From assembly GCF_900114605.1 (NCBI RefSeq), contig NZ_FOTP01000001.1, forward strand, positions 1,240,001-1,304,000: a DNA stretch of 64,000 nt, given 5' to 3'. Each line of letters starts with the position of its first letter. Position 1 is the first letter of the stretch. Shown piece after piece: positions 4,853 to 9,155 of the stretch. Origin of the DNA: Bradyrhizobium sp. NFR13. GTDB lineage: Bacteria > Pseudomonadota > Alphaproteobacteria > Rhizobiales > Xanthobacteraceae. The notes below the pieces were generated by a model, which had not been told where the DNA came from, searched no databases, and saw nothing but the letters and a program-made list of their open reading frames with translations. The position numbers were made by a program, and so were the translations under genes.

Positions 4853-5623
4853 ATGAAAACGATGGATCAGCCGGGCGAAACCACCCATTTCGGCTTCAGG
4901 GACGTCCCGGTGGGCGATAAACAGACGCTGGTGAACGACGTGTTCCACAGCGTGGCCCAGCGCTACGACCTGATGAACGATCTGATGTCCGGCGGCATGC
5001 ATCGCGTCTGGAAGGACGTGATGATCAACCAGCTCAACCCGCCGCGCTCGGACGCACCGTTCGCGCTGCTGGACGTTGCCGGCGGTACCGGCGACATCTC
5101 GTTCCGCGCCGCCAGGGCGTCGGGCCTCGGCTTTTCCGCGACGGTCTGCGACATCAATACGGGGATGCTGGCAGTCGGCCGCGAGCGCGCGATCAAACAG
5201 CATCTCGAACATCAGGTGTCGTTCATCGAGGGCAACGCCGAAGAGTTGCCATTCGCCGACAAGAGCTATGACGCCTATACGATCGCCTTCGGCATCCGCA
5301 ATGTGCCACGCATCGACCGCGCCCTCAGCGAAGCTTACCGCGTGCTGAAGCCCGGCAGCCGTTTTCTCTGTCTCGAATTCTCGACCGTCGACGTGCCCGG
5401 TCTCGACAAGATCTATGACTTGTTCTCGTTCAAGGTGATCCCGCCGCTCGGCAAGGTCGTCACCGGCGACTCTGAATCGTATCAGTATCTCGTGGAATCG
5501 ATCCGCAAGTTTCCGAAGCCACCCGTCTTCGCCGACATGATCCGCGATGCGGGCTTTTCGCGCGTGAAATACGAACTTCTCTCGGGCGGCATCGTCGCAC
5601 TACATTCGGGCTGGCGTTTGTGA
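4853..5623 (+). CDS. ubiE: demethylmenaquinone/ubiquinone methyltransferase UbiE
   Basis: The C-methyltransferase of ubiquinone synthesis (also able to act in menaquinone synthesis), about 256 residues. The family signature is clear: [23 protein letters not shown] near the N-terminus, SAM loop [11 protein letters not shown], and IAFGIRNV with YRVLKPG further on. Start candidates are ATG 4853 (GAGG 8 bases upstream) and ATG 4862; I chose 4853. Its TGA overlaps the GTG start of ubiB (GTGA), so the two are translationally coupled; the ubiE-ubiB pair serves the same pathway at the inner membrane. Confidence 0.96.
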
Positions 5624-7188
5624 TCGCTGGTCTCTCTCATATGGCGCGGCTTGCCCGCGCCGGTTTCGTGTTTGCGCGCGAAGGCGTGTTCGGCGTCGTC
5701 GATCCGTCGCTGGTGCCGCCGCCGGGGCAACTCGCGCTGCGCATGGCGCGGCTCATTGAGCGGCCCGGCGCAAAATCCGGCGCAAGGCTGTCGCGCGCAC
5801 TGACGCGGCTCGGCCCGGCCTATCTCAAGCTCGGACAGTTTCTCGCGACCCGTCCCGACGTGGTCGGCGTTGCCATGGCGCGGGATCTGGAAAGCCTGCA
5901 GGACAGGCTGCCGCCATTCTCCCTGACCGAAGCCGAAGGCGTCGTCGCCGCTTCGCTGGAACGCCCTGTGGCGCAGCTCTATGCGAGCTTTAGCCCGCCG
6001 GTCGCCGCGGCCTCGATCGCGCAAGTGCATCGCGCCGAGATCGACAAGGACGGTGTCCGTAAGACGTACGCCGTGAAAGTGCTGCGCCCGAATGTCGCCG
6101 GGCAATTCCGCCGCGACCTCGGCGATTTCGCTTACGTCGCCCACAAGGCCGAAGAGCATTTTTCCGAAGCACGGCGCCTGCGCCTGATCGAGATTATCAC
6201 CACCATGTCGCGCTCGGTGGCCATGGAGATGGATCTCCGTCTCGAAGCCGCTGCGCTGTCCGAGATGGCGGAGAACACCCGCAGCGATCCGGATTTCCGT
6301 GTCCCCGAAGTGGACTGGGATCGTACCTCGCACAATGTGCTGACGATGGAGTGGATCGACGGCATCGCGCTGAACGATCACAAGCGCCTGGAAGACTCCA
6401 ACGTTGATCTGCCGGATCTCGGCCGCAAGGTGATCCAGAGCTTCCTGCGCCACGCATTGCGTGACGGCTTTTTCCATGCCGACATGCATCCCGGAAATTT
6501 GTTTCTGGACAGCGACGGCCACCTCGTCGCCGTCGACTTCGGCATCATGGGTCGGCTTGGCCTGAAGGAACGGCGCTTTCTCGCGGAGATTCTGCTGGGC
6601 TTCATCACCCGTGACTATCGCCGCGTCGCCGAAGTTCACTTCGAGGCCGGCTATGTGCCGGGTCACCACTCCGTGGAGAATTTCGCGCAGGCGATCCGCG
6701 CCATCGGCGAGCCGATCCACAATCGCACCGCCGAAGAAATCTCGATGGCCAAGCTGCTGACGCTGCTGCTCGAGGTCACCGGTCTGTTCGACATGCGCAC
6801 GCGGCCGGAATTGATCTTGCTGCAGAAGACCATGGTCGTCGTCGAAGGCGTCGCACGAAGCTTCGATCCCAAGCTGGATATCTGGAAGGTCGCCGATCCC
6901 GTCGTGCGCGAATGGATCGAGCGTAATCTTGGCCCATTGGGCAAGATTCAGGGGGCGGTCTCCGGCGCCGGCGAACTCGGAAAGGTCGTCGGCAGCCTGC
7001 CGGCCATGGCAACGCGCGCGCTGACGGTACTCGAACAGCTTGAGACCATGACCCGGGACGGCGTCAGGCTCGACGATGCGAGCATCGCCGCCATCGCACG
7101 GGCACGGGCCAAGCAGCTGCGCTGGCGCACGGTGGGCGTCTGGGTGATCGCGCTGTCGTTCCTCGGATTGCTGCTTTCCGTCCGCTAG
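5620..7188 (+). CDS. ubiB: ubiquinone biosynthesis kinase-like UbiB
   Basis: A 522-residue member of the ABC1/ADCK/UbiB protein-kinase-like family, required for ubiquinone synthesis. The family-specific KxGQ motif is [12 protein letters not shown] (Lys70-Gln73), the [10 protein letters not shown] block replaces the normal glycine-rich loop, and the catalytic segment HADMHPGNL and metal-binding [12 protein letters not shown] are intact. A C-terminal hydrophobic segment ([14 protein letters not shown], about residues 505-520) is the membrane anchor typical of bacterial UbiB. Translation starts at GTG 5620, overlapping the ubiE stop. UbiB is known as an ATPase helping lipid precursors reach the Ubi enzymes; a true protein-kinase role is unlikely. 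Confidence 0.95.
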
Positions 7189-7190
7189 GA

Positions 7191-7229
7191 TGATTGCAAT
7201 GCATGCACTTTGTGCTAGCATTGCTATCA
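7191..7229. promoter_or_regulatory. 39-bp inverted repeat, likely RHH operator
   Basis: Arms TGATTGCAATGCATGCAC (7191-7208) and GTGCTAGCATTGCTATCA (7212-7229) are inverted with 15 of 18 positions paired, around a 3-base TTT centre. The dyad lies right after the ubiB stop and ends 19 bases before the coaBC start. The outer half-site TTGCTATCA resembles, from memory, the half-site bound by gonococcal FitA, the family to which the N-terminal domain of the downstream protein belongs. A possible promoter (TTGCAA at 7194, TAGCAT at 7216, 16-base spacer) would lie inside the repeat, so binding would repress. Binding itself is inferred. Confidence 0.65.
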
Positions 7230-7248
7230 AAATAGCGCGAGACGCCTC

Positions 7249-8694
7249 ATGGCCAACCTGACGATCCGCAAGCTCGACGACGCCATTCGCGACGAATTGC
7301 GACTGCGAGCGGCGCGGAATGGGCGGTCGGTTGAGGACGAGGTGCGAGTCATTTTGCGGGAAGCGTCGCAAGACGGCCTCAAGACTGACGCAAGATTTCC
7401 GCAAGACGCGCCAAATCCGGAACCCCCACCCAAGCCCTTGAAAAATAGCGGCGATCAGCTCCGCGTCACGCTGATCATCGGCGGCGGAATCGCGGCCTAT
7501 AAAGCGCTCGATCTGATCCGCCGGCTGAAAGAGCGCGGCATCCATGTCCGCGTGGTGCTGACCCGCGCCGCGCAGCAATTTGTCACCCCGCTGGCCGCCA
7601 GCGCGCTGTCCAACGAGCGCGCCTATACGGACCTGTTCGATCCGCAGAGCGAATTCGATGCCGGGCATATTCGGCTCGCCAGGGAATGCGATCTCATCGT
7701 TGTGGCGCCGGCAACCGCTGATCTGATGGCGAAGATGGCCAATGGTCATGCGGATGATCTGGCCTCTGCGATTCTGCTCGCATCCGACAAACCGATCCTG
7801 ATTGCGCCGGCGATGAATCCGCTGATGTGGAATAACGCCGCCACGCGCCGCAATGTCGCGCAGTTGCAGCGTGACGGCGTGAGGATGATCGGGCCGAATG
7901 CCGGCGAGATGGCCGAACGTAACGAATCCGGTGTCGGCCGCATGGCGGAGCCGACCGAAATCGCGATTGCCGCTCACACATTCCTGCGGCCACCCACACC
8001 GAAGCCACTGGCCGGCAAGCGCGTGCTGATTACCGCAGGCCCGACCCATGAGCCGATCGATCCCGTGCGCTACATCGCCAACCGCTCGTCCGGCAAGCAA
8101 GGCTATGCAATTGCCGCTGCGGCACGGGCTGCAGGCGCCGAAGTGATTCTCGTCTCGGGTCCCGTCGATCTCGACGAAGTCCCGGACGTGACCATGACGC
8201 ATGTCGAATCGGCGCGCGACATGCTCGCTGCGGTCCGGTCCGCACTGCCCGTCGACATCGCGATCTTCGCGGCGGCCGTGGCCGACTGGCGCGTCGTCAA
8301 CGAGGGCGCGCAGAAGCTGAAGAAGACGGCCGGTGCTGCGATGGCGCCGCTGCAGCTCACGGAAAATCCCGACATCCTCGCGACGATCTCGAAACTTCCC
8401 GAGCATCGCCCGCCGCTGGTGATCGGCTTTGCCGCCGAGACCGAACATCTGATCGACAACGCCAAGGCCAAGATCGCGCGCAAGGGCTGCGACTGGATCG
8501 TTGCCAATGATGTCTCGCCAGCCACCGGTATCATGGGCGGCGACGACAACACCGTGCATCTGCTCACGCGCAGCAAGGACAGCGCCGATATCGCCGTTGA
8601 TTCGTGGGCACCGATGAGCAAGGAACAGGTCGCGACGACCCTGGTCGCGCGAATCGCCGATACCGTGACGCCATCCACGAAAGATCCATCATGA
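7249..8694 (+). CDS. coaBC: RHH domain-CoaBC fusion protein
   Basis: A 481-residue protein. Residues 1-40 ([36 protein letters not shown]) form a FitA-type ribbon-helix-helix DNA-binding domain. A Pro/Lys-rich linker (about 41-66) leads to a complete CoaBC: the CoaC flavoprotein decarboxylase ([16 protein letters not shown], catalytic His in [14 protein letters not shown]) and CoaB ligase ([38 protein letters not shown]). CoaBC makes phosphopantothenoylcysteine and decarboxylates it to 4'-phosphopantetheine for coenzyme A. No good internal start separates the domains. The flap where E. coli CoaC has its catalytic Cys (ACGDIGPGRM) reads [11 protein letters not shown], without Cys. The stop overlaps the dut ATG. 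The DNA-binding role of the fused domain is inferred. Confidence 0.93.
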
Positions 8695-9155
8695 GCGCTG
8701 CCATCCCCGTTCAGGTCGACGTCCGGCAGCTCCCGCATGGCGCAGGCCTCGCGCTGCCAGCCTATCAAACCGCGCATGCCGCCGGCCTCGATCTGCTCGC
8801 CGCGGTTCCCGAGGACAGCCCGATGATTCTCGCCAGCGGCAAATATGCGCTGGTGCCGACCGCGCTGACTATTGCGCTACCACCCGGCTATGAAGCGCAG
8901 GTGCGCCCGCGTTCGGGTCTGGCTGCCAAGCATGGCATCACCGTGCTGAACTCACCGGGCACCATCGACGCCGATTACCGCGGCGAGATCGGCGTGCTGC
9001 TGATCAATCACGGCCCGACAGACTTCACGATCAAACGCGGCGAGCGAATCGCGCAGATGGTGATCGCGCCGGTCACGCATGCGGAACTCGTGGTGGCCGC
9101 GGCGCTCAGCGAAACCGAACGTGGCAGCGGCGGCTTCGGATCCACCGGCCGCTAG
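8691..9155 (+). CDS. dut: dUTP diphosphatase
   Basis: A 154-residue trimeric dUTPase that hydrolyses dUTP to dUMP and PPi, keeping uracil out of DNA and feeding dTMP synthesis. All five family motifs are present: AGLDLLAA (I), RPRSGLA (II), [13 protein letters not shown] (III, with the catalytic Asp and uracil-binding Tyr), RIAQMVI (IV) and [11 protein letters not shown] (V, the flexible C-terminal arm). The ATG at 8691 overlaps the coaBC stop (ATGA). The coaBC-dut pair is a widespread bacterial arrangement. Confidence 0.97.

What the first reader, a model, noticed from the sequence alone, without database searches (positions are those of the whole stretch)
7249..8694. FitA-type ribbon-helix-helix domain fused to CoaBC
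An antitoxin-like RHH DNA-binding domain (residues 1-40) precedes a full CoaC-CoaB enzyme in one frame. No reasonable start codon would allow CoaBC alone to be made. A coenzyme A synthesis enzyme that can bind DNA could regulate its own gene in response to flavin, CoA or substrate, as PutA does for proline. The domains are seen in the sequence and the moonlighting function is inferred.
Basis: partly seen in the sequence, partly recalled or inferred. Interest (0 to 1): 0.72.

Follow-up and report, generated by a model that had tools for sequence, protein, structure and literature searches.

The report
CoA enzyme with captured antitoxin DNA-binding domain
In this Bradyrhizobium-like bacterium an enzyme that makes coenzyme A carries the DNA-binding part of what looks like a former toxin-antitoxin pair, and a matching DNA site sits at its own promoter, so the enzyme probably turns its own gene down.

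Summary
The fusion is real. Residues 2-39 match Pfam FitA-like RHH (3e-15), followed by a complete CoaBC; these are the genome's only CoaBC and only FitA-like matches. A fused representative was seen in at least 27 of 47 family genera. The RHH is the most constrained region (dN/dS 0.046; linker 0.65).

A 17-bp palindrome, TGATTGCAnTGCAATCA, lies upstream of 57 of 59 fused representatives (3 mismatches or fewer) and of 0 of 63 unfused; a promoter-like pair overlaps it in 42 of 57. The exact palindrome occurs once each in 60 of 248 genomes; 56 of these sites precede an RHH gene at the coaBC locus.

Relatives show intermediates: an intact fitAB toxin-antitoxin module with a perfect operator between ubiB and an unfused coaBC (G079, G174), and toxin-deleted versions (G009, G049). 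So CoaBC most likely captured an antitoxin's DNA-binding domain and operator and represses its own gene. Elsewhere in the order CoaBC carries Cro-type HTH domains, also beside palindromes. DNA binding, repression and any CoA/flavin response are inferred, not shown; structure prediction did not finish.

The parts
7249..8694 (+). RHH-CoaBC fusion gene (481 aa)
   Evidence: Open frame with Pfam RHH + Flavoprotein + DFP; only CoaBC match of the genome
7252..7365 (+). FitA-like ribbon-helix-helix domain, residues 2-39
   Evidence: PF22513 E 3.2e-15; dN/dS 0.046 within the genus; only PF22513 match of the genome
7366..7461 (+). unconserved proline-rich linker, residues 40-71; stands where FitA has its toxin-binding tail (role of that tail recalled)
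   Evidence: mean pairwise identity 0.148, dN/dS 0.65 for residues 40-70
7462..7956 (+). CoaC domain (residues 72-236)
   Evidence: PF02441; H140 and N190 invariant in alignment A1; their catalytic role is recalled
8008..8565 (+). CoaB domain (residues 254-439)
   Evidence: PF04127; K356, K358, K359 invariant; role recalled
7191..7207 (+). operator-like palindrome O1, TGATTGCAATGCATGCA
   Evidence: 2 mismatches to TGATWGCANYGCWATCA; conserved in relatives
7213..7229 (+). operator-like palindrome O2, TGCTAGCATTGCTATCA, centre 22 bp from O1
   Evidence: 1 mismatch, shared-best match of the 6.2-Mb genome
7194..7199 (+). possible -35 element TTGCAA, inside O1
   Evidence: similar geometry in relatives; prediction only
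7216..7221 (+). possible -10 element TAGCAT, inside O2
   Evidence: prediction only; the sigma-70 scan reported no site
5620..7188 (+). upstream neighbour ubiB; two bases lie between its stop and O1
   Evidence: ORF; name from sequence likeness, recalled
8691..9155 (+). dut, overlapping the coaBC stop by 4 bases, probably co-transcribed
   Evidence: name recalled

Best explanation
The gene makes a CoaBC enzyme that doubles as the repressor of its own promoter. A fitAB toxin-antitoxin module once sat between ubiB and coaBC. The toxin and the toxin-binding tail of the antitoxin were lost, and the antitoxin's RHH domain became the N-terminus of CoaBC, keeping the module's promoter and operator. 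RHH domains of neighbouring subunits pair and bind the palindromes O1 and O2, which cover the probable -35 and -10 region, so rising enzyme lowers coaBC (and probably dut) transcription. The CoaBC oligomer (a dodecamer in mycobacteria) would hold several RHH pairs together, the clamping job FitB does for FitA. Shown: fusion, conservation, constraint, operator co-occurrence and position, toxin-antitoxin intermediates. Inferred: binding, repression, replacement of the toxin clamp, order of events. Open: whether CoA thioesters, CTP, substrate or flavin state alter binding.
For: RHH and full CoaBC in one frame, sole matches in the genome. RHH dN/dS 0.046 against CoaC 0.097, CoaB 0.113, inter-domain stretch 0.175, linker 0.65. 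Palindrome within 3 mismatches upstream of 57 of 59 fused, 0 of 63 unfused, 18 of 2440 shuffles. In 42 of 57 a TTGnnn-N16-18-nAnnnT pair overlaps it, against 88 of 1140 shuffles. Exact palindrome once each in 60 of 248 genomes, 0 in all for the reversed control pattern; 56 of 60 sites precede an RHH gene at the coaBC locus. RHH-CoaBC fusions of two other families, not used to define the motif, have it too: 5 of 5 examined, 0-3 mismatches. Intact FitA+PIN modules with a perfect operator before fitA, and nothing better than 7 mismatches between fitA and coaBC, at the same locus in G079 and G174; the G079 toxin matches FitB (2h1o_A, E 1.7e-27). Toxin-deleted remnants in G009 and G049. CoaBC dodecamer and its inhibition by CoA thioesters: PMC7794376, passages seen. 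The FitB clamp: PMC3920265, passages seen.
Against: No binding, footprint or expression data. The motif was read by eye from the fused genes, so one search is partly circular (searches are the more independent checks). In many loci the promoter-like hexamers lie within the palindromes, so one search is not independent of the operator; its shuffles are mononucleotide, and 15 of 57 show no such pair. The stricter sigma-70 scan found no site in the window. Two of 59 fused genes have only 4-mismatch sites (L061, L145). In four loci the site lies 156-291 nt upstream of the start (L055, L142, L177, L181). Free-standing FitA modules use varied operators: only 5 of 16 fit this motif within 3 mismatches. 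The g44 modules and G009 have poor sites (4 and 5 mismatches). Four of 60 exact palindromes lie elsewhere. The trees do not settle whether fusion happened once with losses or several times.
Confidence: 0.77

Rival explanations
1. The RHH is a leftover that only helps folding or oligomerisation; the palindrome is read by another FitA-type antitoxin or another regulator.
For: FitA-type domains are common in the family: 119 of 149 genomes, the fused ones included. RHH domains dimerise in any case (established for the fold).
Against: The own genome holds no other PF22513 match. The RHH is the most constrained region, and R7 is invariant in 58 of 58. The palindrome is absent upstream of unfused coaBC (0 of 63) and sits before fitA, not before coaBC, where the module is intact.
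Confidence: 0.08
2. The palindrome acts as an RNA hairpin or terminator of ubiB and has nothing to do with the RHH.
For: It lies just after the ubiB stop and is an imperfect inverted repeat.
Against: Unfused ubiB-coaBC junctions lack it (0 of 63 upstream regions). In 42 of 57 it overlaps the promoter-like pair, so it would be mostly outside the coaBC transcript. The terminator scan of 7100-7300 found nothing on the + strand.
Confidence: 0.05
3. RHH-CoaBC is a wider regulator with a regulon of CoA or lipid genes.
For: 77 sites within 3 mismatches per strand in the genome, against 39 and 41 for the reversed control pattern.
Against: The exact palindrome occurs at most once per genome in 248 genomes. 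The next best own-genome sites (9 loci inspected by eye) showed no CoA gene.
Confidence: 0.1
4. Two products are made: full-length regulator-enzyme and a shorter CoaBC from an internal start.
For: In-frame TTG at codon 64; 42 of 58 fused representatives have some ATG/GTG/TTG between RHH and the CoaC core, 9 of 58 an ATG.
Against: The codons are at scattered positions, and 16 of 58 have none.
Confidence: 0.12

Closest known systems
PutA, type C (trifunctional proline utilization A)
   Same: Metabolic enzyme with an N-terminal RHH domain that represses its own genes (PMC5293562, passages seen).
   Different: Different enzyme; PutA also binds membranes and switches with proline. Here the RHH and operator trace to a toxin-antitoxin module, and no inducer is known.
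FitAB toxin-antitoxin system (Neisseria gonorrhoeae; PDB 2h1o, 2bsq)
   Same: Same Pfam RHH family; an intact module with a FitB-like toxin occurs at the coaBC locus of relatives. From memory (no call), the FitAB operator half-site TGATAGCA/TGCTATCA equals half-sites seen here.
   Different: No toxin in the window's locus, no toxin-binding tail; the RHH is covalently part of an enzyme.
Bacterial CoaBC (Dfp), e.g. M. smegmatis 6TGV
   Same: Full CoaC-CoaB architecture.
   Different: 6TGV matches only residues 71-449; ordinary CoaBC lacks the roughly 70 extra N-terminal residues with the DNA-binding domain.
BirA, NadR and other autoregulating enzymes (recalled)
   Same: Enzyme and repressor in one chain.
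   Different: Other folds, effectors and histories.

Membership tests
CoaBC (bifunctional PPCDC/PPCS) | Flavoprotein (CoaC) plus DFP (CoaB) domains in one chain | tested here: met
   PF02441, PF04127, TIGR00521 390 bits against cut-off 219.7
CoaBC (bifunctional PPCDC/PPCS) | Catalytic residues kept | tested here: met
   H140, N190, K356, K358, K359 invariant in 43 rows; their role is recalled
FitA-like RHH | PF22513 above its curated cut-off | tested here: met
   56.2 bits against 27
FitA-like RHH | Binds DNA as a dimer | not testable with these tools
   binding needs the bench; the structure job had not finished
FitAB toxin-antitoxin system | Cognate PIN toxin next to the antitoxin | tested here: not met
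   the next gene is dut; no free FitA in the genome. Met only in relatives G079, G174, G044, G074
PutA-type autogenous RHH enzyme (way of working) | RHH fused N-terminally to a metabolic enzyme | tested here: met
PutA-type autogenous RHH enzyme (way of working) | Operator at the own promoter | tested here: inconclusive
   conserved operator-like palindromes at a predicted promoter; binding not tested
PutA-type autogenous RHH enzyme (way of working) | Ligand switches between DNA-bound and enzymatic state | not tested
   no data
PutA (family) | Proline dehydrogenase and P5C dehydrogenase domains | tested here: not met
   absent from the Pfam matches

The most novel reading that the evidence does not exclude
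In Hyphomicrobiales the CoA-synthesis enzyme CoaBC has repeatedly been turned into the sensor and repressor of its own gene by acquiring a DNA-binding domain: a domesticated FitA antitoxin with its operator (perhaps several times at one toxin-antitoxin insertion site) and, separately, Cro-type HTH domains with other palindromes. CoaBC's oligomeric state or CoA-thioester occupancy would gate DNA binding, giving a transcriptional feedback loop on CoA synthesis.
Probability: 0.4. Interest if true: 0.88.

Novelty: new variant of a known kind. Interest (0 to 1): 0.78.

Why it matters
To my knowledge transcriptional control of coaBC is little described; the searches (open-access library only, listings with title and start of abstract) turned up nothing that describes a DNA-binding CoaBC. 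If true, a core-metabolism enzyme regulates its own gene with parts taken from a toxin-antitoxin module, and intact module, toxin-deleted remnants and finished fusion all exist in living relatives at one locus. That makes the domestication of a toxin-antitoxin system directly testable, and proposes a feedback loop on coenzyme A supply in Bradyrhizobium-like bacteria.

Tried and rejected
Regulon idea: the next best own-genome sites (9 loci) showed no CoA gene by eye. Single-origin idea: fused rows need 6 changes or 9 on the trees; strongly supported branches force 1, 1 and 3, so neither one origin with losses nor several origins is excluded. G049 is a fragmented assembly (about 400 contigs) and may not represent its genus. 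Structure: alignment A1 was queued, but the job had not finished. A search of 385 class genomes with the Cro-HTH CoaBC listed no match from residue 1 (one row, G676, starts at residue 4 but holds four stops and was not followed), so that fusion was seen only in f32 g157 and record L075.

Rows dropped: 122 representatives (under 90% identity) of 175 distinct cores; short cores L212, L235, L236 were left out. One search used 98 of the 122, one search used 78 rows (76 of the 122 plus two new), one search used 114. The dN/dS used 13 loci of the genus named in the script (L008 and L009 not included). The frame-broken L062 counts as fused and is left out (58 rows). Match lists are cut by the tool; genus counts use rows shown. 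The first check of the stretch between fitA and coaBC covered only part of it; one search repeated it over nearly the whole stretch (from 20 bases after the start of fitA).

Motif caveat: TGATWGCANYGCWATCA was read by eye, whose 74 loci include duplicates (for example L001/L002, L007/L032).

Full report
Observation. The window holds one open frame at 7249-8694 (+), 481 residues. Pfam finds FitA-like_RHH at residues 2-39 (E 3.2e-15), Flavoprotein at 72-236 and DFP at 254-439; NCBIfam calls it CoaBC. The nearest solved RHH is FitA (2h1o, 2bsq; E 0.012); the enzyme part matches M. smegmatis CoaBC 6TGV (E 7e-70, residues 71-449). In the 6.22-Mb genome there is one CoaBC match and one PF22513 match, both this gene. 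Residues H140, N190, K356, K358 and K359 are invariant in 43 aligned CoaBC rows; that they are catalytic is recalled.

Spread. Of 80 named genome loci kept by the tool, 43 match from residue 1 (among them Bradyrhizobium, Rhodopseudomonas, Nitrobacter, Afipia, Pseudolabrys); 37 start at residue 18 or later (among them Xanthobacter, Ancylobacter, Azospirillum, Roseovarius). In the family, 292 of 296 genomes have a CoaBC match. Rows shown give a fused representative in at least 27 of 47 genera (10 plus 17); 17 further genera have an unfused representative. Outside the family, fused genes occur in f16 g160 (L271) and f24 g108 (L272-L275); one search adds three rows in f24 that match from residue 1 or 3 and were not examined. 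In the 398 genomes the rows shown outside the order start at residue 17 or later (list cut by the tool).

Selection. Among 58 fused representatives the RHH averages 71% pairwise identity, the linker 15%. In the window's genus (13 loci) dN/dS is 0.046 for the RHH, 0.65 for the linker, 0.097 for CoaC, 0.175 for the stretch between the enzyme domains and 0.113 for CoaB. An unused leftover would not be the most constrained part. No internal start codon is conserved; the window has a TTG at codon 64.

Operator. The upstream repeat resolves into two 17-bp palindromes, 7191-7207 and 7213-7229, 22 bp centre to centre; two bases separate the ubiB stop from the first and 19 the second from the ATG. Reading 74 fused loci (some duplicates) gave the pattern TGATWGCANYGCWATCA. 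In 300 bp upstream, 57 of 59 representatives have a site with 3 mismatches or fewer (26 perfect), against 0 of 63 unfused and 18 of 2440 dinucleotide shuffles. Because the pattern came from these loci, two further checks matter. The exact palindrome TGATTGCANTGCAATCA is found in 60 of 248 genomes, once each, and the reversed control pattern in none; by coordinates 56 of 60 sites directly precede an RHH gene at the coaBC locus (G164 judged from overlapping contig ends), and 4 do not (G205 and G065, about 4.2 kb away; G060 and G094, inside longer repeats). And the five fused genes of the two other families have sites with 0, 0, 0, 1 and 3 mismatches. In the own genome the two palindromes have 1 and 2 mismatches; one other place ties with 1 mismatch on one strand, within mechanical open frames, and no two other listed places lie within 25 bp of each other (list cut by the tool).

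Promoter. In 42 of 57 loci with the operator, a TTGnnn-N16-18-nAnnnT pair overlaps it, against 88 of 1140 mononucleotide shuffles, in two main geometries: -35 beginning one base before a single palindrome, or -35 in O1 and -10 in O2. In the second geometry the hexamers are part of the palindromes, so this count is not independent of the operator. In the window: TTGCAA 7194-7199 and TAGCAT 7216-7221. This is where a repressor would sit. The generic sigma-70 scan found no site at its stricter threshold, so the promoter is a prediction.

Origin. Between ubiB and an unfused coaBC, G079 has an intact module: operator TGATTGCAATGCAATCA, a FitA-like antitoxin (PF22513 1.1e-19), a PIN toxin (PF01850 1.7e-11; FitB 2h1o_A E 1.7e-27), then coaBC. 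G174, whose CoaBC groups with Xanthobacter, has the same order with TGATTGCACTGCAATCA. G044 and G074 have a FitA/PIN module there with a poorer site, 4 mismatches. In G009 and G049 the antitoxin remains and the toxin is internally deleted, leaving pieces of its two ends before an unfused coaBC; G049 has a perfect site, G009 only a 5-mismatch one. Between the start of fitA and coaBC the best match has 7 mismatches in G079 and G174, which ties the palindrome to the RHH gene rather than to coaBC. The G079 antitoxin's RHH is nearer to the fused ones (mean 25.7 of 37 identical, best 30) than to the 16 other family FitAs compared (21.2). The simplest reading is capture of antitoxin RHH and operator by CoaBC after loss of the toxin. 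Trees of the CoaBC core do not say how often: fused rows need 6 changes or 9, strongly supported branches force 1 or 3, and the toxin-deleted G049 lies inside a fused genus.

Mechanism. FitA pairs bind operator DNA and FitB holds them together (PMC3920265, passages). CoaBC of mycobacteria is a dodecamer and its CoaB activity is inhibited by CoA and acyl-CoAs (PMC7794376, passages). A dodecamer would carry up to six RHH pairs, so the enzyme could replace the toxin as the bridge; this is inference. Negative autoregulation is inferred from site position; any metabolite control is open. PutA shows that the design works (PMC5293562, passages).

Parallel cases. Seven distinct CoaBC genes (six f32 g157 genomes and record L075; L081 and L089 repeat two of them) carry a Cro-type HTH (HTH_3 E 2.3e-8 and 5.8e-10 for the two tested). 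In one search all nine rows form one clade. TTACATnnnATGTAA is perfect just upstream in 3 of 7 (one, L303/L081, read by eye), with 1 to 3 mismatches in the other 4; in L075 it is at another position. No shuffle control was run for this motif. L307 (G357) has another Cro-type HTH (HTH_3 7e-7) with two copies of GGATATATCC upstream; L315 (G494) has an N-terminal stretch that looks HTH-like by eye but has no Pfam match. Of 20 further long-framed CoaBC loci taken from the order and class searches, none showed such a domain by eye. If the HTH forms work alike, CoaBC has been put under its own DNA-binding domain more than once.

Literature. Searches of the open-access library gave no listing that by title and start of abstract describes a DNA-binding CoaBC; subscription papers and preprints are not covered. 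The Makarova toxin-antitoxin survey (PMC2701414) has no occurrence of 'flavoprotein' or 'pantothen' in its main text.

Verdict. Real, conserved and under selection; autoregulation by a captured antitoxin domain is the best explanation at 0.77, not yet shown by experiment.

Noticed in passing
L301-L306, L075, L081, L089 (start of coaBC): CoaBC with an N-terminal Cro/XRE-type HTH instead of RHH, with full or partial TTACATnnnATGTAA palindromes upstream.
   Followed up: partly
L307 (G357), upstream of coaBC: Another Cro-type HTH-CoaBC fusion, with two copies of GGATATATCC directly upstream of the start.
   Followed up: partly
L315 (G494), start of coaBC: About 70 extra N-terminal residues that look HTH-like by eye but match no Pfam model.
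   Followed up: no
window 8685-8700: coaBC stop and dut start overlap by 4 bases, so repression of coaBC would probably also cover dut.
   Followed up: no
L341 4237, L342 1421 (G205, G065): Exact operator palindrome about 4.2 kb from coaBC, at a similar place in two genomes of g26, not before an RHH gene.
   Followed up: partly
L343, L344 (G060, G094): Exact palindrome inside longer inverted repeats (CCGATC flanks), probably unrelated repeats.
   Followed up: partly
L062 and L163 (G236, Afipia MAG): RHH and CoaBC parts lie in different frames near codon 60; sequencing error or real break not settled.
   Followed up: no
L055, L142, L177, L181: Extra sequence, some of it repeat-like, lies between operator and start, putting the palindrome 156-291 nt upstream.
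   Followed up: no
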